NCBI RefSeq assembly: GCF_020520425.1
Contig: NC_079491.1
Span: forward strand, 9,101,143 to 9,165,142
DNA: 64,000 bases
Direction: 5' to 3'
Source: Spinacia oleracea
Lineage: Eukaryota; Streptophyta; Magnoliopsida; Caryophyllales; Amaranthaceae
Position numbers and translations under genes: made by a program. Each line of letters opens with the position of its first letter. Position 1 is the stretch's first letter. Below the pieces are notes generated by a model. It was not told where the DNA came from, made no database searches, and saw nothing but the letters and a program-made list of their open reading frames with translations. Positions 7,385-46,620 of this stretch are shown in pieces.

Positions 7385-7446
7385 CACCTTAATCTAAGTC
7401 ATTAGACATATACAAAACACTCTCCTAACTTCCTAAGTACATAGTA

Positions 7447-8091
7447 ATGGCAGCTATTCTTTGCATGGTAGTTTTCTTGCTTGCTCCTTTTGTCTCCCAC
7501 GCCGCTGATCCCGATCCGTTGCTGGACTTCTGCGTAGCAGACCTCGACTCCTCTCCCACGTTCGCTAATTTCCCTTGCAAACCAGCCTCAAATGTGACCT
7601 CCGAAGACTTCTTCTTCGATGGGTTAATGAACGAGGGCAACACGTCAAACCTCTTTGGTTCAAGGGTCACCCCCGGTAATGTTCTGACATTCCCGGCCCT
7701 GAATATGCTTGGAATCTCAATGAACCGGGTCGATCTTGCCCCTAACGGGTTGAACCCGCCCCATTCCCACCCACGAGCGAGCGAGAGCGGGGTGGTGATT
7801 AAGGGACGAGTCCTAGTCGGGTTCGTGACCACGGGGAACGTGTTCTACTCTAAGGTGTTGGGTCCCGGGCAGATGTTTGTGATCCCTAGAGGGTTGGTTC
7901 ATTTTCAGAAGAATGTGGGGGGGAAAAAGGCGGTAATTTTAACAGCATTCAACAGCCAGAATGCAGGGGCAGTGGTTTTATCCACAACTCTGTTTGGTAC
8001 AAACCCTTCGATTCCGGATCATGTTTTGACCCAAACTTTTCAAGTGGATTCAAGCGTTATCAATGGAATACAATCCAATTTCGGATCTTAA
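7447..8091 (+). CDS. Germin-like protein, copy 1
   Basis: This is an intronless 214-residue cupin of the germin-like family: secreted, usually hexameric, metal-binding glycoproteins of the cell wall, some with superoxide dismutase activity. Residues 1-20 form a signal peptide ending ...VSHAA. C29 and C44 form the family's N-terminal disulfide pair. N49 (NVT) and N65 (NTS) are glycosylation sequons. Cupin box 1 carries H106, H108 and E113 and box 2 carries H152, so all four metal ligands are present. Full length for the family. Copy 2 at 10159 differs at only about a dozen residues, and promoters and 3' flanks also align. The first ATG follows a well-placed TATA box. Enzyme activity cannot be read from sequence. 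Confidence 0.95.
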   Translation: MAAILCMVVFLLAPFVSHAADPDPLLDFCVADLDSSPTFANFPCKPASNVTSEDFFFDGLMNEGNTSNLFGSRVTPGNVLTFPALNMLGISMNRVDLAPNGLNPPHSHPRASESGVVIKGRVLVGFVTTGNVFYSKVLGPGQMFVIPRGLVHFQKNVGGKKAVILTAFNSQNAGAVVLSTTLFGTNPSIPDHVLTQTFQVDSSVINGIQSNFGS

Positions 8092-9189: not shown

Positions 9190-9475
9190 CTTCTGGAATT
9201 TTCTGAAGCTGGAGCCAAAGATTCATTTGTTCTTTTGGCTGTGGGATGTAATGGACTAAATCAAAATGACTCTTAAAACCTCTTCGCTTCCTTTCCATGA
9301 AGTAGAAAATGGTCGTCCCGTTGTGATTTGTTATTGATTTTGGGTCAATTGGAAATAACCTCTCTGCAATTGCAGGGGTAAGGTTGCGTGCATCCGACCC
9401 CCTCTTACCCCGCTTCTTGCGGAAGCCTCTTTGAGGCAATGGGGTAATGATAATGAAATGATAATGAATGGTAGA
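9190..9475 (+). mobile_element. SINE-like repeat, copy A
   Basis: About 285 bp matches 15403-15671 in inverse orientation: GGAGCCAAAGATTCATTTG at the left, TAAGGTTGCGTGCATCCGAC and GCCTCTTTGAGGCAATGGGG to the right, ending in a TGATAATGA-rich tail. Copy B has a clear target duplication; here I could not define one. The shared ORF peptide (FPIDPK...[15 protein letters not shown]) reflects DNA similarity, not a gene. Confidence 0.65.
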
Positions 9476-10097: not shown

Positions 10098-10158
10098 CAC
10101 CCTAATCTAAATCTTTAGACAGATAAAAACACTCTCCTAACTTCCTAAGTACATAGTC

Positions 10159-10803
10159 ATGGCAGCTCTTCTTTGCATGGTAGTTTTCTTGCTTGCTCCT
10201 TTTCTCTCCCACGCCGCTGATCCTGACCCGTTGATGGACTTCTGCGTAGCAGACCTCGGCTCCTCTCCCACGTTCGCCAACTTCCCTTGCAAACCAGCCT
10301 CAAATGTGACCTCCGAAGACTTCTTCTTCGATGGGTTAATGAACGAGGGCAACACGTCCAACCTCTTTGGTTCAAGGGTCACCCCCGGTAATGTTCTGAC
10401 ATTCCCGGCTCTGAATATGCTTGGAATCTCAATGAACCGGGTTGATCTTGCCCCTAACGGATTGAACCCGCCCCATTCCCACCCACGAGCGAGCGAGAGC
10501 GGGGTGGTGATTAAGGGAAGAGTCCTAGTCGGGTTCGTGACCACGGGAAACGTGTTCTACTCTAAGGTGTTGGGTCCCGGGCAAATGTTTGTGATCCCTA
10601 GAGGTTTGGTTCATTTTCAGAAGAATGTGGGGGAAAATAAGGTGGTAATTTTAACAGCATTCAACAGCCAGAATGCAGGGGCGGTGGTTTTATCCACAAC
10701 TCTGTTTGATACCAATCCTTCAATTCCGGGTCATGTTTTGACCCAGAATTTCCAAGTGGATTCAAGCATTATCAATGGAATACAATCTAATTTGGGATCT
10801 TAA
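10159..10803 (+). CDS. Germin-like protein, copy 2
   Basis: This is a tandem paralogue of the GLP at 7447, also 214 residues and intronless. Signal peptide, the cysteine pair (29, 44), both sequons and the four cupin metal ligands (H106, H108, E113, H152) are intact. It differs from copy 1 at about twelve positions, several in the C-terminal third. The frame is open over its whole length, so it is probably functional. Its 5' flank is a second copy of the 7180-7440 region, and its 3' flank aligns with that of copy 1 for several hundred bases. Being near-identical, the two genes may be co-expressed and could undergo gene conversion; that is inference. Confidence 0.95.
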   Translation: MAALLCMVVFLLAPFLSHAADPDPLMDFCVADLGSSPTFANFPCKPASNVTSEDFFFDGLMNEGNTSNLFGSRVTPGNVLTFPALNMLGISMNRVDLAPNGLNPPHSHPRASESGVVIKGRVLVGFVTTGNVFYSKVLGPGQMFVIPRGLVHFQKNVGENKVVILTAFNSQNAGAVVLSTTLFDTNPSIPGHVLTQNFQVDSSIINGIQSNLGS

Positions 10804-15200: not shown

Positions 15201-17012
15201 AACATAGGGGTATATACGGACTTGGGAGTTACAAATGACAGAAGCATACAGGGTGTATATATTTGGGCAAAGGGAGAATATCATTGGAGGATTACACATC
15301 CCTTTACTAAATTCAAATGATAGCTAGAGAGAATGGTAGAGTGAGATAAATGGACATACATATTGCAAGGCAGAACCGCAGAAAACACTTATTATATGCA
15401 GTCATTATCATTCATTATCATTACCCCATTGCCTCAAAGAGGCTATCGCAAGAAGCGGGGTAAGGGGGGTCGGACGTACGCAACCTTAACCCTGTAATTG
15501 CAGAGAGGTTGTTTCCAATTGACCCAAAAGCGATAACGGGACGACAACCGAACGACCATCTTCTACTTCATGGAAATAAAGCGAAGAGGTTTAAGAGCCA
15601 TTTTGATTTAGTTCATTACATCCCACAGCCAAAAGAACAAATGAATCTTTGGCTCCATCGGAAATGGACAAACTTATTATACGCAGTACCTTAACAAAAT
15701 CTTCATGTTATAAATTTACAGTATGAAATTAACAATCAGTAAGGGGGATTAATAAATTTTATCACAACCTTATTGCATTCTATCTAGTTGCTGGCTAATA
15801 TCACCCCCTTCTCTCTTCCTCTCTTCATCCACTGATTTTTGGCCAATTTTGGCAAGAAACAGATCAACTTTTTCAGGAACTCAACTTTTCTGACCCCATT
15901 GCTTTGTTTATTTTAGTCTTTTGATATTTCATCAAATCAATCAACATGCCATGTAAAATTTGTATGTTTCTCTAGTTGTCTTCCCAGTATGTGGGTGTTC
16001 ATTTTGCCTCACTTAGCGAGTTAGCGGTAATTTTTATTGGTGGTGCACAAGTGGTCTAGATTGTCAAGATTATACCACGGACATAAGTTCAATGTGAATC
16101 TCGTATGAAGTGAGTTTTTCTTTCACGAAACAAGACGACAATGGAACAACGTAGATATCAACCGGATTTTTATATAGTGAGTTCTTGATCACAGATAGTG
16201 TATGGCTTCTTGTTAATGAGTATTTCCCTTTCGCAATTGAAGCAAAAGAGATTAATGATCAATACCAAGCTTTAACAACAAAGCTAAAGTCAGCCTTCTT
16301 GAAACTTATGAGGCAAATGAGTTTCATGTGTTCTTCTATCTAATTCGGTTTCAAGAGGGGGTTAGCTACATAGAACTCCCAATGGTAATTTGACTAAACC
16401 AATGACAATAAGGTTTGTTACAGCCTAAAAGGGAAGCTGAATTATGATCATAGCCAAAGCTCCAAGAACACACATGGTTACAAAAAAAATACCATAAATC
16501 AAAGTCCAAATTTTCAAATTTTAAACACTACGCAAAATGACAAAACAGCAATTCAACGTTCAAACATCTCAAAGAAGCATCAAAACAATTAAAACCTAAT
16601 ACTATTTGAGCTAAAAATGAGCTAATATTTGCAATAGGAAACCAACAAGAAAAGAGAGAATTACCAATTCATTGCCACTACTAGTAGTGGAAACAATCTT
16701 AGAAGACTCATCCTCTGAGATAATCTCTCTCCTCTTTCTCCCACCACCGCCGCCACGGCCGCCACCAAGACTTCCACTTTGATCAGTGACAGTCGATTCT
16801 TCAATTGATCCATCCCTATTCATTGCCCCCACAACACCATTACTCAACAACCCATCAAGCAAACTACTCATAAACCCACCACCACTCCCCATTCTCAACC
16901 CCAACATCCCGTCACCGTCAGAATCACCTCCACCACCATTAAACGGCCAAATCTCGGCCAATGAAGGGTTTGCTGTTGAGAATGAACCTTCACTTATCAA
17001 TGGAGGATCCAT
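12240..17012 (-). CDS. bHLH transcription factor, bHLH79/BPE-like
   Basis: Six exons on the minus strand, all phase 0: 17012-16665, 14406-14215, 14008-13943, 13753-13685, 13358-13287 and 12383-12240, giving 296 residues. The N-terminus MDPPLIS and the segment with EIWPF match the bHLH79 group. A Gly-rich acidic linker and a basic [13 protein letters not shown] stretch follow. The bHLH domain occupies about residues 163-230. Its basic region holds the His-Glu-Arg residues for E-box/G-box binding (HSLAERARREK), and the helices include LQDLVPGC and [20 protein letters not shown]. The C-terminus, with PEWLHMQ and GGNFERT, is typical of this group, whose members act in cell expansion and petal growth. 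It is a nuclear DNA-binding dimer. Start is the ATG at 17012; the preceding in-frame TTG is not a start. Introns hold a SINE and a Tourist-like MITE. Confidence 0.93.
12458..12791. mobile_element. Tourist/PIF-Harbinger-like MITE in bHLH intron 5
   Basis: A 334-bp block with inverted ends GGCTCCATTTGGTTTGG and complementary CTACTAAACGGAGCC is flanked by TTA on both sides (12455-12457, 12792-12794). TTA duplication and GGCTCCRTTTGG ends are typical of this class. Confidence 0.8.
15403..15671 (-). mobile_element. SINE-like repeat, copy B, in bHLH intron 1
   Basis: 269 bp on the minus strand, similar to 9190-9475. It is bracketed by ACTTATTATATGCAGT (15387-15402) and ACTTATTATACGCAGT (15672-15687), a 16-bp target duplication with one mismatch, as expected for LINE-assisted insertion. 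The tail is TGATAATGA-type rather than poly(A). I see no clear pol III B box, so its RNA ancestry is undecided. Confidence 0.8.
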
Positions 17013-17695: not shown

Positions 17696-17941
17696 GAGGA
17701 AGTCTTGGCCTCAAGTAACTTGTGTCCATATGGACACAGGTGGCTTGTAATTGGTACTTGCTAATTTGGTATTGGTACTAAGACTAGTATGGTATTGGTA
17801 TACCAATACATTGCTAAGAAGTACCAATACAAATTATTTGTGTTATTGGTACTCACATATGCTGTGTTGGTACTAAAAATAATTGTATTTGAGTCACTTG
17901 TGTCCATATGGACACAAGCCACTTGAGGTTTAGCAATCCTC
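17696..17941. mobile_element. MULE-type MITE, copy 1
   Basis: A 246-bp element with long imperfect inverted ends: GAGGAAGTCTTGGCCTCAAG on the left and a right end that reads GAGGATTGCTAAACCTCAAG when complemented, each followed by the palindrome TGTGTCCATATGGACACA. Flanks GTAAGAGAG and GGAAGAGAG give an 8-of-9 target duplication. Copy 2 at 46147-46392 has the same length in opposite orientation. Confidence 0.85.
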
Positions 17942-18461
17942 GGAAGAGAGTCCACTTATATGACATGGTTGGAACTTACAGGACCTTATTCTAACTTTTA
18001 ACTGAATTTATTAGACTTAAAACTGTTTTTTTTAAGGTGAAGAGAATACACCCTCACTTGAGATATAAAATGAGTTAATTAGACTATTGTTTTTACCTTA
18101 TATGATGAGCATGTGTGAACGCGTGTTCATTGTGTTGCATGTAGGTTTATACATGTGTAGTAATCGTATTATTTTACTACACCGTGCATTTGCATAGGTG
18201 CACTCGTCGGCATATGTGATGCATACATTAATTGAAACACACTATTTTGTTGTTGGACAAACTTATTAACGACCTACTCCACCGATAGTGAGAAATATGG
18301 ACAAATGCTCTCATTAAAATGTAAGCATAGTGTATTATCCTTTGGGTTTTATTATGAAGGAAGTAGTCATTGAAGCCTGAAATGATAGTTAACTTGTCTA
18401 GCATCAGTAACACCACATGACTACCCAATCCTCTCATAATTCATAACAATATTAATATACT
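17942..18461. other. Intergenic, no gene recognised
   Basis: AT-rich spacer between two MITEs. Short ORFs here have no recognisable motif. No RNA gene seen. Confidence 0.5.
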
Positions 18462-20620: not shown

Positions 20621-21266
20621 GGACTCAAACACCAATATCTTACTTAAGTTACTTCTACTAGCTCTTGGTGCGCGCAATGTGCACAAACGTTTTAAAAACT
20701 TTGCTTTTATACGTAAGCAACATTTCAACACTTTAAAATTATTTTAACCATTTAAACTTAACACTAAAAGTGGAATTATATAATAAAGATAATATCAAAA
20801 TATATTACTTCTAATACGTTACATACTTACATTATCAATCATTTGTGGTTTTCATATTAGCAATAATTCTTTGTAATTGTAAACAAAGATCTTATGGATT
20901 TCCCTCTTTCACGACCCAACCTATAGGCCCAGCTACATTACCAGCCCATTACCAGCTATTAAATTTGAACTTTGTCCCTCAACTTGAGTCTTGGTACGCG
21001 AAGGTATTACCACCTCATTTCCTTTTTATGTATTGTTCGTTTTACTCGAATTTCATTTATCTTATCAAAATATTCAGAACGTCTTTCAATCACAAGGTGT
21101 AAAATAATTTATTATACAATAAGATAATTTTTAGAGCGATTTCTTTCAATATTGCATAAAGATCTAATAATTCCCTAAATACGTTACTTTCTAAGTTATT
21201 TCCTACCATACCGTCCACGTAAGCAAGGGAGAAAGAGAAGTAATTTTTTTTTCCGGTTCAGCATTG

Positions 21267-21359
21267 AACCGCCATATGAGATAGCGGTTTCGTTTTAAAG
21301 AAAACCGCCATCTGAGATGGCGGTTTAATGTTATAAACCGCTATCTGAGATAGCGGTTT
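21267..21359. repeat. Three clustered AACCGC..GCGGTT palindromes (a fourth at 21691-21715)
   Basis: Palindromes at 21267-21290, 21302-21326 and 21335-21359, with a related one at 21691-21715. Core sequences are CCGCCATCTGAGATGGCGG and CCGCTATCTGAGATAGCGG, so arms co-vary (C/G to T/A) while staying paired. Such covariation suggests that the hairpin itself matters, or repeated inverted duplication. Confidence 0.85.
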
Positions 21360-21440
21360 GCTTAGTTGTAAATTATTTTTAACATGAATTACAGTTTAAA
21401 TAGAAATATAACTTAGAAGTAACCTCTTGTGACATCAATT

Positions 21441-21513
21441 GCGTTTGTAGCTTAGTGGTTAGAGCGTGTTGTTTCTAAGCAAAAGGTTGTGGGTTCAAAC
21501 CCTTCCTGACGCA
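21441..21513 (+). tRNA. tRNA-Arg(UCU)-like sequence, probably degenerate
   Basis: 73 bases with tRNA layout: acceptor GCGTTTG/CTGACGC (one mismatch), D arm GCTT..GAGC paired, loop TTTCTAA giving anticodon TCT, and T loop TTCAAAC. The anticodon stem has about three mismatches and the T stem one, so a working tRNA is doubtful. It resembles plant tRNA-Arg and lies inside the inverted-repeat element. Confidence 0.5.
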
Positions 21514-21580
21514 CTTATTTCTTTTTAACCATTTCTTAATATTATTTATAAACATTACCAAATTTAACTTATCAACATTA

Positions 21581-21653
21581 GTGTCTGTAGCTCAGTGGAT
21601 AGAGCGTTTGCTTCCTACGCAGAAGGTCGTAGGTTCGACCCACACCTCACGCG
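21581..21653 (+). tRNA. tRNA-Arg(CCU)-like sequence, probably degenerate
   Basis: 73 bases very close to plant tRNA-Arg(CCT). The D arm GCTCAGTGGATAGAGC and anticodon arm (loop TTCCTAC) are well formed and box B (GGTTCGACC) is good. The T stem and acceptor stem each have about two mismatches. It lies 67 bp after the UCU-like copy on the same strand. Confidence 0.55.
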
Positions 21654-22853
21654 GTTATTTTATTTTTTACCATTTATAAATAGTGATTATAAACCGCTAT
21701 CTCATGTAGCGGTTTAGTGCCGCTTCGTTTAAAAAAAAGACCTGTTTTAATGCTGACGTGGACGGTATGGTGGGATTAAGTTAAAAAGTGGCGCATTTTG
21801 GGAATTTGGCGTTCTTTAAACAATATTGAAGGAAATCGCTCTAATTTTTATCCAACTTTGTAACTTATCAAATATTTTTTTTGTAACTTTACTATTTTTG
21901 ATTAACTTTTATATTATAAAAAAAGATGATAGACATTTTAAAGGTTATATGATTAATTTATACGAAGTACGTTATTACTGGTTTGGGAATTTTTTTTATT
22001 AAAATGAATTTTTTTATCACTACAAATAGATAACTTTTACATATATAGGGAAAACTTTTAAGCGTTTTGAATTTACTTTTTATCCAGTGTACAATGTTTA
22101 TTGTACATTACTTGTAAATAAGAATATGTGAAAATTGTTAATCCTAAATTTATATTACGGAAATTTCATGAAATACCCTCGAGTTTTGCTAAAATTCACC
22201 AAACGCCCATCAAGTTTCAACAATTCATAAAATACCCCTCACCATCCGTACAAATGCCCACCATACCCTTACTGTTAACAGACGTTAAGTCTCCGTTACG
22301 GGTAGTTTACCATTCTGCCCTTATTTTCCTTTTGGGCGCCATATCCCTTCCCTACCCTTGTTACCCATTCCAAAGTTCAAAAAAATCGCGACCCTGTAAC
22401 TGCTTTGCTTCTCTCTCTCTCTCTCTCCCCTGTTCTTCTTCCTTCTTCCACCATAACTGCATCATCAATCTCACAAAAAGGTTCTGAATTTTGGTGCGCA
22501 TTTAGTTGGTGAAGTAGTTTTCTGGGTTTTGAACCACACACGCTTTCTCAGAAAGGGAATTTTGGCGAATTGGGCAAGGAAGCTGTAGAAGTTCAAGTGT
22601 TGAATTTCGTGTTCGAAGGTTACCCACGCATCGTTTAAGGTATGTAATGTCAATCGCTGAACTTTTTATTCGCTTTTTTAAACTTGTGTTGCGCAAAATT
22701 AGGGTTTAGGGTTTCTGGAAAATTTGATGTTGGATGATGACTTGTTTGTTTGTGTTCATGAAAAAAAGTAGGAATTGAGTAATTAAATGACATGCATGTC
22801 AAGTTGTTAATGGAAATTACTGTTTTTTTGTTGATTTGCTGTTGTGTGTTAGG

Positions 22854-25800
22854 ATGTCTGCTGTTTGGTTGTTGCTGCACTATAAGTCTCATGACTTTGA
22901 TGTGAGGGTTGTAGACACTGATAAATGTCAGTTGATAGACATATTCATAGATATTTTTGAGGAATCGACTAAGCAAAATGTGTTTTTGCCTGAAAAGTTT
23001 AGGTTATACACTAACTCACCCACTGGGAGGGTAGAATTGGTTGATGATAGTGTAATGCTGAGAATGTGGGGGTGGAATATGGGGACTGACACCATAGAGT
23101 TGTGGGTAGAGGAATCAGACAGTCCTGGGGTAGCATTTAGGTCTGCTGTAGCTCTGCTTGAAAGGCAAAGGAAGGAGGATGAAAGGAAAATGAGGGAGAG
23201 ACAGGAAGAGGTTTTGAGGATGCAAAAAAGAGGCTGAAGAACAGAGGAGGGTAGAGGAGGAAAAGGAGAGGGTTAGGAAGGAAATGGAGGAACAAATGAG
23301 GTTCACAGTTGCCATGGAGGTCCCAGTGGTGGATGTGGAGAATGATGGGGTTGAGTATGTGAGGATAATTACCTCAGATGATGCTGATGAAGTGTTTCCT
23401 GGCCTATCTCAACCAGAACCAGAACCACAAACACAAGAATCCCCCTCTAAGAAACCTACCAAATCAAAATCTAAGAAGAAACTTACCCCAAAAAAGAGGA
23501 AACAAAAACCTGCCCCCCCACAACCTACTGAAACTGACCCACAATCACCCCAGCCCACACAACCTGAAACAACACAACCTACACAAGAAGCACCCCAACC
23601 CACACAACCTGAAACTTCCCCCCACCTCCATCACAACAAGCAACACCTGAAACTGCCCCCCCACCTCCATCACAGCAAGCAGGACCTGAACCAGTGGTCC
23701 CAACCAAACCCAAAAAATCAGGAAGGGCTAGACCTAAGGGGTTTAGGGTGGGGAAAAAAACACAAGTCAAAATGGGAACATATGTTCCTAAATATGGTAG
23801 GGGAAACACAAGGGCTGCTAGGAATGGGAAGGGTAAGGGTAGTGATGTGATATCTGATGTTGAGGATGATGAGGACAGTGAAGATGTTGACTTTGAGGAA
23901 ACTGGCAGTGATGGGAGTGATGATGACAGTGAGGATGAAACAGACATTGGTGACTTCATTGTTGAAGAGGAGGGGTTGGAGGATTTGATGGATGAAATCC
24001 ATGAGAAGTCATTTGAGGATTGTTTAGACGGGAGCTCAAAAATGGACAAAAATTACAAGAATGGGAAAGTGTATGTTGAGCAGGAATGGGGTTCAATTAA
24101 GCTTGAGCCTTGGTTGATATTTAAAGATAGGGAGGCTTTTCTTGATGTTCTTAAGGACTATTTTATACAAGAGAGGTTTGGGTTAAGTGTTGAGAAGGCA
24201 GACAGTAGAAGATACACTGCTGTTTGTGCAATTGAGGGGTGTGATTGGAGGATTCATGCTTCAAAGATGGTTGATAAGATGAGTTGGGCTATAAAATCAC
24301 TGACTGGGGAGCATAAACAGTGTGGTAGACTAGAGGTGAACCCCATAGTGACCACCAAATGGTTAGTGAAGAAGTTGTTGCCAGAGATTGAAGCAAACCT
24401 AGATGTTCCTGTAGAAACATTGCAGAATGTGACTCAAAAAATGTTTAGGCTACAAGTTAACAAGAGGCTATTCTACAAGGTTAAGGCAGTGGCTAAGGAG
24501 ATTATCCATGGGAGTTTTAGTGAGTCATATGCCCTTCTACCTAGGTATGCAGAGATGATCAAAGAGACTAATCCTGGTAGTTATGCATTGATCACATGGC
24601 ATAATGATGGTGGGAATGTGGACCCAAGGTTTAAGGCTTGCTTCTTCTCATTTGGTGCACAAGTAAGGGGGTTCCTGAAGGGGTGTAGGCCCATTATTGG
24701 AATTGATGGAGCTCACCTTAGTGGGTATTTCAAGGGGATTCTGCTGTCAGCCTTGGGGATTGATGGCAACAATGAGATATTCTTGCTTGCTTATGGGGTT
24801 GTTGACACTGAAAGCCAAGAGAGCTGGACCTATTTCATGAGGAACCTCAGGGCACTGTTTCAGAGAGAAGGCTGCAACAAGGATGACTGGACATTCATCA
24901 GTGACAGAATGAGGGTAAATTCTGAACTTTTATCTCTTATATTCAAGTTTTTATAAATTCACCAAATACCCCAAAGTTAAAACTTAATTCACCAAATACC
25001 CCAAAGTTAAAACTTAATTCACCAAATACCCCAAAGTTAAAACTTAATTCACCAAATACCCCAAAGTTAAAACTTAATTCACCAAATACCCCAAAATTAA
25101 AACTTATTCACCAATAATCCCACAGTTTAATATTGTTTGCCTTGTCATTGTTTAATCTTAGGGGGTGGATTTAGCTGTACATGAGAACTTCCCTAAGGCC
25201 ACTAGAAGGTGTTGCAGTCAGCACTTGTACATGAACTGCAAGAATGGTGGTTGGAGTGGAGAATTGTTCCACAAACTATTCTGGATAGCTGCTAATGCTT
25301 ACAACCCCTATGTGTACAACAAGGCCATGGAGAAGATCACTGACTTTGATCCCAGGGCTACACAGTACTTGGATACATGTACTGAGCAGTGGTCCAGACA
25401 TCAGTTTGAGCCAGAAGTGTGTTGTGATCATAACACAACAAACTTTGTGGAATCATTCAATGCTGTCACCAAGCCCTACAGGGATTTACCAGTGTTGAGA
25501 CTGTTTGAAGGTATTGTGTTCTGTTTTTTTCCCCATTTTCTATTTCTGTCAGATTTTCAGTGATTATGTTCTTATGTTTACTTGGTTATTGTGTTAAAAT
25601 GCAGCTATTAGGGAGTGGTCTATGCAGAGAATTGGGGTCAGATTTGACAAAGCAGCAGACATGGAGCCTCAACACTTAACTGAGCATGCCAAAGTTGAAC
25701 TGGAGTTGAGAACAGCTGAATCCAGGTTTTGCTACTCTACTCCATGTGGTGGTGGGGAGTATGAGGTGAGGGAAGGCCATGTGAAATTCCCAGTCAACAT

Positions 25801-26278
25801 TGACAGGAGAACCTGTGGGTGTGGAGTTTGGCAGGTGTCTGGTATTCCCTGCAAACATGGTTTGAGGGTCATTTACAACCAGAGACTAGACCCTCTGGAC
25901 TTTGTGTCCCATTTCTTCAAGGGTGCTGCTTATAAGCTGGCATATGCAGAACATATGCACCCTATGCCTGACCCTACTCAGTGGCCTGAGTTCAACCTTC
26001 CCACCATTAACCCTCCTGGAATTAAGAGGACTGCTGGAAGACCCCCTAAACAAAGAAAGAGGGGTGCTATGGAAGCTAAGAAGAGGAAGAGGCACACTTC
26101 AGTAAAGTGTAGCAAATGCAAGGAGATGGGCCACAATGCAAGGACTTGCAAGTCTGGCACTGGCAGTTCCAAGGCACCACCAAAACAGAGGGTTACAACA
26201 AGGAAGAGGAAAACTGGTGATGATGGAGCAAGCACATCCAAGGCAGCACCAAAAGGGAAGAAATCAAAGCAAGCATGA
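22854..26278 (+). CDS. MURA-type MULE transposase (two frameshifts)
   Basis: Exons 22854-24914, 25162-25510 and 25605-26278, plus a probable 5' untranslated intron (donor at 22640, acceptor just before the ATG). Conceptual length is about 1,027 residues. An N-terminal PB1-like region is followed by a Pro/Thr/Gln and acidic linker, a MULE DNA-binding region (CAIEGCDWRIHASK), and a DDE core: first Asp in GIDGAHLSG (~618), second in FISDRMRG (~684), Glu in NFVESFN (~784). A SWIM zinc finger (CGCGVWQVSGIPCKH) lies near 875 and a CCHC zinc knuckle (CSKCKEMGHNARTC) near 975, with a basic tail. The A6 run at 23224-23229 shifts the frame and leads to a TGA at 23235. The C6 run at 23618-23623 shifts it back. 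As sequenced the protein would be truncated; either indel could be a sequencing error. Intron 1 contains a 30-bp tandem array. Confidence 0.92.
24957..25110 (+). repeat. 30-bp tandem array in the transposase intron
   Basis: Five near-identical 30-bp units (ATTCACCAAATACCCC... plus AAAGTTAAAACTTA), with a degenerate sixth to about 25130. The unit resembles three copies in opposite orientation near the MULE 3' end (27035-27110) and the ACCAAACGCCC motif of the terminal repeat. Confidence 0.9.
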
Positions 26279-26481
26279 GGTGGGGACTGTTTAAGGAGCA
26301 CAGTGGGTGTTTTGGGTAGTTTTTGATCTTGCACATATTCATTAAGTAGAAAACAGATGTAGTTAGTGCAAAGATGTGTTGTAAGTGAAGCTAAAAAACA
26401 GATATGCTTCCCATTTTGGTATTTTGTGGAATTTATGCAACAACAATTATGAAATGTGATTTTATTTCTTATTCATTGTGT

Positions 26482-26874
26482 CTACTTCATGATTACAAAT
26501 AGTAGGGTTACAAACATCAATATCCCCATTTGAATTACAAGTTTAACTACGTTTTGTTGTTGTTTGAGCTTTTTCTTCATTTGCTTCAATTCCTCTTGCA
26601 TATTATTGCTTCCCCTGTTTTCAGCACTTTCTCCTTCGTCTAAGCTTCCCCTGTGTTGTCCTTCGAGCTGCTGCCCCCTGTTTTCTTGCTCAACTACTCC
26701 CTTGCACCATCTTAGATTGTTGCAAGGATCACACTTGTAGTACAACCTTTGTGGATTGAGCGTTGTATCGGAGCTTCGGATGGCAAATTTCCTACCACAA
26801 TAACAAAATTTGTTAGGTACTCTAATATATGTGGACTCATTGTGTGTGGAAGATGATTTTGAAACAAAACTCAT
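26482..26874 (-). CDS. GRF zinc-finger, coiled-coil, membrane-anchored protein of the MULE
   Basis: A single-exon 130-residue ORF inside the MULE, convergent with the transposase gene (stop to stop about 200 bp). Residues ~22-60 form a GRF-type zinc finger: FCYCGRKFAIRSS, then YYKCDPCNNLRWCKG, with four cysteines. A charged stretch (GEQ-rich, ~62-88) leads to a Lys/Gln coiled coil (QEELKQMKKKLKQQQ), and a hydrophobic segment (MGILMFVTLLFVIM) ends the protein as a tail anchor. GRF fingers bind nucleic acid. The layout recalls the convergent mudrA/mudrB pair of maize MuDR, but I see no similarity to MURB. A role in transposition is inference; the intact frame within a mobile element argues for use. 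Confidence 0.8.
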   Translation of the reverse strand: MSFVSKSSSTHNESTYIRVPNKFCYCGRKFAIRSSDTTLNPQRLYYKCDPCNNLRWCKGVVEQENRGQQLEGQHRGSLDEGESAENRGSNNMQEELKQMKKKLKQQQNVVKLVIQMGILMFVTLLFVIMK

Positions 26875-27034
26875 GATAGAAATCTTATAAGATTAGAAAA
26901 CCAAAGCAAAACAACAACAAAAGTACATGAACAACCCAGCAAGGGGGCTTTTATAGCCTACCAGAACCAACGGCTACTTTTCATACAAAAAAACTAGCCG
27001 TTGGAACAACAAAACTAGCTAAATTTTATGTTAG

Positions 27035-27115
27035 GGCATTTGGTGAAATAAGTTTGAGATTAGGGGCATTTGGTGAAATAAGTTTGAATTTAGGGGCATT
27101 TGGTGAATTAGAAAC
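27035..27115 (-). repeat. Subterminal 30-bp repeats at the MULE 3' end
   Basis: Three copies of GGGCATTTGGTGAA(ATAAGTTTGA) in direct succession, inverted relative to the intronic array at 24957. They sit just inside the 3' terminal inverted repeat, a usual place for transposase binding sites. Confidence 0.8.
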
Positions 27116-27271
27116 TTAGCTAACGGCGGACTAACGGCACGTTATTAGTAAGGGTATGGTGGGCATTTGTACGGATGGTGAGGGGTATTTTATGAATTGT
27201 TGAAACTTGATGGGCGTTTGGTGAATTTCAGCAAAACTCGAGAGCATTTCATGAAATAACCGTTTATATTA

Positions 27272-33699: not shown

Positions 33700-34570
33700 A
33701 AAGTAACAGCTAATTATGAACAATTGAACATAGGTAGGAAATTAGGAATCCATAAACCAAAACGTACAAAGTAAAAACATCTATACAACAAAAGAACCCA
33801 GTAACTACAATAATTGTATTTACATTCCGAAGTACTGTAGCAAGAAAGTGACAACTAATTCCGAACAGACGAATGAATTCATAAATCAAAGCTTACATCA
33901 TAAAAGCATTTAGACAACACAAAGAAACAAGTAACTACAACAATTGTATTTACATTCTTAAGTAGCAAGAAAGTGACAACTAATTCCGAACAGACGAATG
34001 AATTCATAAATCAAAGCTTACATCATAAAAGCATTTAGACAACACAAAGAAACCAATAACTACAACAATTGTATTTACATTCTTAAGTAGCAAGAAAGTG
34101 ACAACTAATTCCGAACAGACGAATGAATTCATAAATCAAAGCTTACATCATAAAAGCATTTAGACAACACAAAGAAACAAGTAACTACAACAATTGTATT
34201 TACATTCTTAAGTAGCAAGAAAGTGACAACTAATTCCGAACAGACGAATGAATTCATAAATCAAAGCTTACATCATAAAAGCATTTAGACAACACAAAGA
34301 AACCAATAACTACAACAATTGTATTTACATTCTTAAGTAGCAAGAAAGTGACAACTAATTCCGAACAGACGAATGAATTCATAAATCAAAGCTTACATCA
34401 TAAAAGCATTTAGACAACACAAAGAAACCTGTAACTACAACAATTGTATTTACATTCTTAAGTAGCAAGAAAGTGACAACTAATTCCGAATAGAATGAAT
34501 TCATAAATCAAAGCATCTAGACAACACAAAGAAACCTGTAACTACATCACTTGTATTTATATTTTAAAGT
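33700..34570. repeat. 125-bp tandem repeat array, about seven units
   Basis: Units start at about 33838, 33962, 34087, 34212, 34337 and 34462 (GTAGCAAGAAAGTGACAAC), exactly 125 bp apart in the centre, with degenerate units at both ends (from about 33700 and to 34570). Central copies are almost identical. Variant CAAGTAACT alternates with CCAATAACT in successive units, which implies a 250-bp second-order unit. Non-coding. Confidence 0.92.
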
Positions 34571-46100: not shown

Positions 46101-46620
46101 GTGTAATTAGATTGTTGGAAGCCGGTTAGCCACCCGAGTCCACCTCGAGGATTGCTAAATCTCAAGTGGCTTGTGTCCATATGAACACAATTGACTCAAA
46201 TACAATTATTTTTAGTACCAACACAGCATGGGTCAGTACCAATAACATAAATAATTTGTATTGGTACTTCTTAATAATGTATTGGTATACCAATATCATA
46301 CTAGTCTTAGTACCAATACCAAATTAGCGGGTACCAATTACAAGCCACTTGTGTCCATATGGACACAAGTCACTTGAGGCCAAGACTTCCTCAGTCCACC
46401 TCAGACTATAAACTATAAAAATCATATCATATTAGGCGAAAAAAATAAGGTACTCCTTTCGTTTCTTTTTGTTCTTTATATTTGATTTTTTACACATTTA
46501 TTAGATTGTTGGAAGCCGGTTAGCTACCAGAGTCCACCTCAAACCATGAACTATAAAAATTAAATCATATTAGGCAAAGAAAATAAGGTATTCCTTCCAT
46601 TTCTTTCTGTTCTTTACGTT
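46101..46620. repeat. Tandem duplication, one copy carrying a MITE
   Basis: ATTAGATTGTTGGAAGCCGG begins at about 46109 and again at 46501. Each is followed by TTAGC.ACC.GAGTCCACCTC, then AACTATAAAAAT and a Stowaway-like TTTCKTTCT segment. The first copy is interrupted by the 246-bp MITE; the second is not. Confidence 0.9.
46147..46392. mobile_element. MULE-type MITE, copy 2, with perfect target duplication
   Basis: 246 bp, same family as 17696-17941 in opposite orientation. Flanked by AGTCCACCTC at 46137-46146 and 46393-46402, a 10-bp duplication. The unoccupied paralogous site at about 46530-46542 has a single AGTCCACCTC. Confidence 0.93.

What the first reader, a model, noticed from the sequence alone, without database searches (positions are those of the whole stretch)
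21133..21842. Inverted-repeat element carrying two tRNA-Arg-like genes and four covarying palindromes
A 710-bp unit with 22-bp outer inverted repeats, a 7-bp target duplication, a second perfect 16-bp inverted pair inside, and an interior of tRNA-Arg(UCU)-like and tRNA-Arg(CCU)-like sequences plus four hairpins of one family with compensatory changes. I know no standard MITE class built like this. The tRNA parts could give internal pol III promoters; the hairpins could be small-RNA sources or protein sites.
Basis: partly seen in the sequence, partly recalled or inferred. Interest (0 to 1): 0.74.

Follow-up and report, generated by a model that had tools for sequence, protein, structure and literature searches.

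The report
Mutator-type mini-transposon carrying tRNA-Arg remnants
A 708-base plant mini-transposon, apparently of Mutator type and with palindromes in its ends, has picked up two tRNA-gene copies that look worn out; it is a curious but understandable variant of a known kind of jumping DNA.

Summary
The "second 16-bp inverted pair" is the best-kept inner block of one long inverted arm (118 of 151 aligned bases identical) that runs into palindromes 1 and 4. The 9-bp duplication and long arms point to a non-autonomous Mutator-like element (MULE) of foldback type. Both tRNA-Arg-like units carry tRNA-gene signals outside the tRNA body (TATA, CAA, T-run) as well as A and B boxes, yet their stems are damaged. 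A captured tRNA gene, duplicated and decayed, is the simplest account. The "covarying" claim is weak: one of 12 palindrome pairs changes on both sides, no more than in shuffles. Foldback MULEs are published, and capture of tRNA genes by transposable elements has been proposed for wheat. Nine paper searches on transposons with tRNA listed no report of the combination.

The parts
21125..21133 (.). left target-site duplication TAATTTTTA
   Evidence: identical to 21842-21850
21134..21154 (+). left tip of terminal inverted repeat
   Evidence: 20/21 to right tip
21134..21290 (+). left long inverted arm, including palindrome 1
   Evidence: 118/151 aligned bases identical to right arm
   Evidence: 23/25 to 21751-21775
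21266..21290 (.). palindrome 1 (imperfect), partner of palindrome 4 in the arm alignment
21302..21326 (.). palindrome 2, perfect 12-bp arms, 1-base centre
21335..21359 (.). palindrome 3, perfect 12-bp arms, 1-base centre
21407..21526 (+). tRNA unit 1 from TATA (-34) through CAA (-5) and the tRNA body to a 5-T run (+9)
21441..21513 (+). tRNA-Arg(TCT)-like sequence, anticodon stem 2/5 paired
   Evidence: Rfam 44.6 bits; pairing
21547..21668 (+). tRNA unit 2 from TATA (-34) through CAA (-8, another at -22) and the tRNA body to T runs of 4 (+5) and 6 (+10)
21581..21653 (+). tRNA-Arg(CCT)-like sequence, acceptor 5/7 and T stem 3/5 paired
   Evidence: ARAGORN; Rfam 41.0 bits; pairing
21691..21715 (.). 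palindrome 4 (imperfect centre)
21690..21841 (-). right long inverted arm
21751..21775 (-). conserved inner block of the right arm
21821..21841 (-). right tip of terminal inverted repeat
21842..21850 (.). right target-site duplication TAATTTTTA

Best explanation
A non-autonomous Mutator-superfamily element (MULE-type MITE, foldback build) in a plant genome. Shown: 9-bp target duplication, long inverted arms, no ORF of 100 aa or more inside, palindromic modules in and next to the arms, two tRNA-gene-like units in the interior. Inferred: a MULE transposase supplied in trans cuts at the tips and recognises conserved blocks of the arms. The inner 25-bp block is my candidate binding site, because it is better kept (23/25) than the stretch before it (31/44). 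The interior was acquired as DNA, since the tRNA units keep upstream and downstream signals that an RNA copy of a tRNA would lack. One tRNA-Arg gene, duplicated in tandem (140 bp apart, related 3' flanks), is the simplest source; the TCT/CCT difference could then be one later base change. Pol III may still transcribe the units, but they are unlikely to give working tRNAs.
For: Perfect 9-bp duplication and 20/21 tips; arms 118/151; block pattern 20/21, 31/44, 23/25. TATA, CAA, A and B boxes and T-run in both tRNA units, signal kinds listed for plant tRNA genes in PMC11700998 (passages); TATA in the upstream 50, CAA in the last 10 and 5 or more T in the first 16 bases downstream occur together in 0.4% of 20,000 random window positions of matched composition (0.2% at any composition). 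Damaged stems. 3' flanks of the units alike (6 of 2000 shuffles reach the score). 9-11 bp duplications and arms of 100-500 bp given as marks of MULEs (PMC3310237, passages; 7-12 bp in PMC9168764, passages). Foldback MULEs known (PMC4486113, passages). tRNA-gene capture by TEs proposed for wheat (PMC4298962, passages). A MULE with transposase-domain ORF pieces and its own 9-bp flanks lies about 300 bp away, so the superfamily is present in this genome.
Against: No second copy is in the window, and the genome could not be searched, so family status is untested. No transposase with matching ends was found: the neighbouring MULE shares only an 11-mer with one arm (30 of 1000 shuffles also share one). 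The 5' flanks of the two units are not alike (379 of 2000 shuffles reach the score), so two separate captures remain possible. Taken singly the upstream signals are common here (TATA 41%, CAA 19% at matched composition), and I chose the thresholds after seeing the units. The duplication can also be parsed as 7 bp. The parent tRNA gene was not found, so capture is inferred.
Confidence: 0.8

Rival explanations
1. The tRNA units are a working part of the element, kept because pol III transcription through them helps it, for example by opening chromatin or making small RNAs together with the hairpins.
For: A box, B box, TATA, CAA and T-run are present in both units while cloverleaf stems have decayed; palindromes 1-3 can fold as RNA hairpins (-53.1 kcal/mol for 21262-21362); some microRNA models match the hairpins at E 0.0003-0.0025 in a 708-base search.
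Against: These signals are expected in any captured plant tRNA gene that has not decayed far, and one element gives no test of selection. The microRNA matches score 30-32 bits against cut-offs of 69-117 and probably reflect hairpin shape alone.
Confidence: 0.1
2. The tRNA-like parts are one or two SINEs that inserted into a MULE-type MITE.
For: SINEs begin with tRNA-like promoters; there are two such units; the DNA after each is AT-rich.
Against: Upstream TATA and CAA and a T-run within 10 bases of each tRNA body fit whole tRNA genes better. Words shared between the stretches before, between and after the units are at most 9 bases and AT-rich, so no clear SINE-type flanking duplication is seen. 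No SINE library was available for a direct comparison.
Confidence: 0.05
3. A transposon that targets tRNA genes (Dada type).
Against: Here the tRNA sequences are inside the element, not at its flanks. Dada-U6 and Dada-U1 are described as lacking terminal inverted repeats; this element has long ones.
Confidence: 0.01
4. A MITE of another cut-and-paste superfamily (hAT, P or similar), part of the 9-bp match being chance.
For: The junction can be read as a 22-bp repeat with a 7-bp duplication; the target is AT-rich.
Against: All 9 bases match and arms of about 150 bp are typical of MULEs.
Confidence: 0.06

Closest known systems
MuTAnT, a Mutator-like foldback family of Medicago truncatula (PMC4486113, passages read)
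   Same: Long inverted arms built of modules with foldback structure, 9-nt duplication, AT-rich target, no coding capacity in the short copies.
   Different: 90% of MuTAnTs are 200-300 bp, their ends carry zero to four G, they favour (TA)n repeats, and no tRNA content is mentioned in the passages I saw (12 of 16 places).
Pack-MULEs and Pack-TYPE elements (PMC8903248 and PMC3310237, passages read)
   Same: Non-autonomous, inverted ends, target duplication, interior of captured host DNA.
   Different: Defined by captured coding DNA; here the cargo looks like tRNA-gene DNA. The term tRNA does not occur in the main text of PMC8903248.
tRNA-Lys genes proposed to be captured and expanded by TEs in wheat (PMC4298962, passages read)
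   Same: tRNA genes spread as passengers of repeats, many thought non-functional.
   Different: Different tRNA and a cereal host; the passages do not name the carrier.
Dada transposons (PMC3706591, passages read)
   Same: A DNA transposon together with tRNA genes.
   Different: Inserts into tRNA genes; no terminal inverted repeats in the U6 and U1 families; 6-7 bp duplications.

Membership tests
Mutator-like element (MULE) | target duplication of about 9 bp (7-12 reported) | tested here: met
   TAATTTTTA 9/9 on both sides; ranges
Mutator-like element (MULE) | long terminal inverted repeats (about 100-500 bp) | tested here: met
   arms 157/152 bp, 118/151 identical, far above shuffles. 78% identity is just under the 80% used as a search criterion in PMC3310237
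Mutator-like element (MULE) | moved by a MURA-type transposase that recognises these ends | not testable with these tools
   neighbouring MULE has different ends apart from one 11-mer; genome search unanswered
MITE | short, non-coding, with inverted ends | tested here: met
   708 bp; no listed ORF of 100 aa or more overlaps 21134-21841
MITE | many homogeneous copies in the genome | not tested
   one copy in the window; unanswered
Pack-MULE | interior derived from a host gene elsewhere in the genome (coding DNA in the usual definition) | tested here: inconclusive
   tRNA-gene-like interior with gene-type signals; parent locus not searchable
Functional plant tRNA gene | intact cloverleaf stems | tested here: not met
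   unit 1 acceptor 6/7, D 4/4, anticodon 2/5, T 4/5; unit 2 acceptor 5/7, D 4/4, anticodon 5/5, T 3/5
Functional plant tRNA gene | A and B boxes, upstream CAA, downstream T-run | tested here: met
   control; plant signals described
SINE | flanking target duplication around the tRNA-like unit | tested here: not met
   no shared word of 10 bases or more around the units; one AT-rich 9-mer
SINE | tRNA-like head joined to a tRNA-unrelated body and A/T-rich tail | tested here: inconclusive
   AT-rich DNA follows each unit after a T-run; no SINE library to compare with
Dada | inserted inside a small-RNA gene | tested here: not met
   tRNA sequences are inside the element; none found at its flanks; feature

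The most novel reading that the evidence does not exclude
A MULE foldback family that uses a duplicated tRNA-Arg unit as a built-in pol III promoter: tRNA function is lost while promoter and terminator signals are kept, and the subterminal palindromes give hairpin RNAs or protein sites. It would be a DNA transposon with SINE-like transcription signals.
Probability: 0.1. Interest if true: 0.6.

Novelty: new variant of a known kind. Interest (0 to 1): 0.33.

Why it matters
If more copies exist, this shows a cut-and-paste route by which plant tRNA genes are copied and scattered, adding tRNA pseudogenes that mislead tRNA annotation and may seed new pol III transcripts. If the tRNA units proved to be kept by selection in a family, it would be a new way for a DNA transposon to recruit pol III.

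Tried and rejected
Exact-pattern scans of viral contigs for the palindrome, the inner block and the tip gave 0 matches each, not informative for plant DNA. Genome contigs was not scanned, being prokaryotic.

Paper searches: ten of ten used. Nine bear on transposons with tRNA content: 0 papers; 25 of 38 listed; 25 of 93; 8 of 8; 11 of 11; 15 of 123; 15 of 16; 1 of 1; 15 of 640. (12 of 42) was for plant tRNA-gene signals. No listed title or abstract start names a MULE or MITE carrying tRNA-Arg genes, but several lists were cut, the library holds open-licence papers only, and I looked into eight papers by passages only.

Rejected: microRNA reading of the hairpins (scores far below cut-offs, though E-values in the small search reach 0.0003); nested insertion of a second element bounded by the inner 16-bp pair (it aligns within one arm); the neighbouring MULE as shown mobiliser (one 11-mer in common); Dada and SINE readings as given above.

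The perfect duplication does not date the insertion: with 0 of 9 differences, divergence up to about 28% is not excluded at the 95% level (my arithmetic, no call).

Full report
Setting. The window reads as plant DNA. It holds two similar germin-like genes: the one at 7447-8088 matches Pfam Cupin_1 and PDB chains of oxalate oxidase 1 at E about 7e-57; the second, at 10159-10803, is judged by likeness to the first. It also holds a MuDR-type transposase in pieces. The species is not known to me, and no eukaryotic genome collection was available.

Bounds. The best parse is an element at 21134-21841 (708 bp) between two copies of TAATTTTTA at 21125-21133 and 21842-21850. The tips match at 20 of 21 bases; the tip pattern occurs only at these two ends and in none of 100 shuffles of the window. 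Two 9-mers drawn at random from the window agree in 28 of 1,981,320 draws, so the 9-base match is unlikely to be chance.

Arms. Aligned with gaps, the arms (21134-21290, and 21690-21841 reversed) agree at 118 of 151 aligned bases, with score 148 against a best of 26 in 1000 shuffles. Conservation is uneven: tip 20/21, middle 31/44, inner block 23/25; 0 of 5000 shuffles reach 31/44 for the middle. The arms end in palindromes 1 and 4. A 9-bp duplication with long arms is the mark of Mutator-like elements (PMC3310237; PMC9168764; passages read). Foldback builds among them are described for MuTAnT, with Jittery and FARE1 cited in the same paper (PMC4486113, passages).

Palindromes. The four 25-bp copies are related, three of them in tandem at 33-36 bp spacing. 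Two have perfect 12-bp arms; none of 500 shuffles of the element has such a hairpin, and the whole window has one other (the other is at 46347-46370). The claim of compensatory change reduces to one pair of twelve in one copy of four, with 313 of 500 shuffles doing as well; one copy shows the unpaired C/A state at that site. Copying of one palindrome arm from the other would give the same pattern without RNA selection (inference). A second MITE in the window, copies at 17696-17942 and 46146-46392 (94% alike, inverted), has 22-bp palindromes in its arms. The copy at 46146 is flanked by a perfect 9-bp duplication, AGTCCACCT. The copy at 17696 matches at 7 of 8 with the tool's bounds, or 8 of 9 with its end moved by one base. 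Palindromes in MULE-like arms are therefore not peculiar to the focal element.

tRNA units. Both reach the Rfam tRNA cut-off (44.6 and 41.0 against 29 bits). They are 54/73 identical and start 140 bp apart. Each has TATA at -34, CAA at -5 (unit 1) or -8 and -22 (unit 2), A and B boxes, and a T-run at +9 (unit 1) or at +5 and +10 (unit 2). These are kinds of signal listed for plant tRNA genes; in that paper TATA is found upstream of only 22-32% and CAA within 10 bases of about 36-45% of tRNA genes (PMC11700998, passages). As a control made after seeing the units, 20,000 random window positions of matched composition have TATA in the upstream 50 bases in 41%, CAA in the last 10 in 19%, five or more T in the first 16 downstream in 6.6%, and all three in 0.4%. 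Each signal alone is thus weak; the set in both units is not, though the two units are related and not independent. Each unit also has damaged stems: unit 1 acceptor 6/7, D 4/4, anticodon 2/5, T 4/5; unit 2 acceptor 5/7, D 4/4, anticodon 5/5, T 3/5. Their 3' flanks are alike (6 of 2000 shuffles reach the score); their 5' flanks are not (379 of 2000). Capture of a tRNA gene as DNA, a tandem duplication and decay explain this most simply. Two captures remain possible. For wheat, capture of tRNA genes by TEs followed by expansion has been proposed (PMC4298962, passages).

Neighbour. A MULE of 5,105 bp at 22158-27262 lies about 300 bp away. Its ORF pieces carry DBD_Tnp_Mut, MULE and SWIM domains, its ends are 94% complementary over 123 bp, and it has 9-bp flanks TTTATATTA; the same 9-mer also occurs at 21908-21916. 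Its ends share CCCACCATACC with the focal right arm, and the left arm has that word with one change. 30 of 1000 shuffles also share an 11-mer. The word lies in the conserved inner block, so it is a lead for a shared recognition site, no more.

Mechanism. Shown: anatomy and an insertion footprint of MULE type. Inferred: trans-mobilisation by a MULE transposase, with the tip and the 25-bp block as contact sites, and the tRNA units as passengers that may still attract pol III. Not shown: copy number, mobility, transcription, or any function of the palindromes.

Verdict. A new variant of a known kind: a foldback MULE-type MITE with tRNA-gene cargo. Foldback MULEs are published and tRNA capture by TEs has been proposed. 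Nine searches of an open-licence library (several lists cut) listed no report of the combination, which is weak evidence of absence.

Changes made on checking. The pol III signal control and an eighth genome search (not completed) were added; unit ends, the germin wording, the SINE rows and the count of relevant paper searches were corrected.

Noticed in passing
22158-27262: A 5.1-kb MULE with DBD_Tnp_Mut, MULE and SWIM domains in separate ORF pieces, 94% complementary ends and 9-bp flanks TTTATATTA.
   Followed up: partly
21201-21225, 21751-21775 and the MULE ends at 22158-22300 / 27130-27262: The word CCCACCATACC is shared by the focal right arm and both ends of the neighbouring MULE, at position 68 of the arm and 100 of the MULE ends; 30 of 1000 shuffles also share an 11-mer.
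   Followed up: partly
17696-17942 and 46146-46392: Two inverted copies (94%) of a 247-bp MITE with 22-bp palindromes in its arms; the second copy has a perfect 9-bp duplication AGTCCACCT.
   Followed up: partly
26482-26892 (minus strand): ORF inside the MULE with a cysteine pattern that I recall as GRF-zinc-finger-like; Pfam gave no match at 0.001.
   Followed up: partly
24956-25114 and 27034-27107: 30-bp tandem repeats of 5.3 and 2.5 copies with similar-looking units on opposite strands, between transposase pieces and near the right end of the MULE.
   Followed up: no
33746-34514: A 125-bp unit repeated 6.1 times at 94% match.
   Followed up: no
7414-8091 and 10126-10803: Duplicated germin-like genes, 96% identical over the first 300 bp (Pfam run on the first only).
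   Followed up: no
9210-9457 and 15411-15657: Inverted pairs of about 250 bp in several blocks at 90-97%, possibly two copies of another repeat.
   Followed up: no
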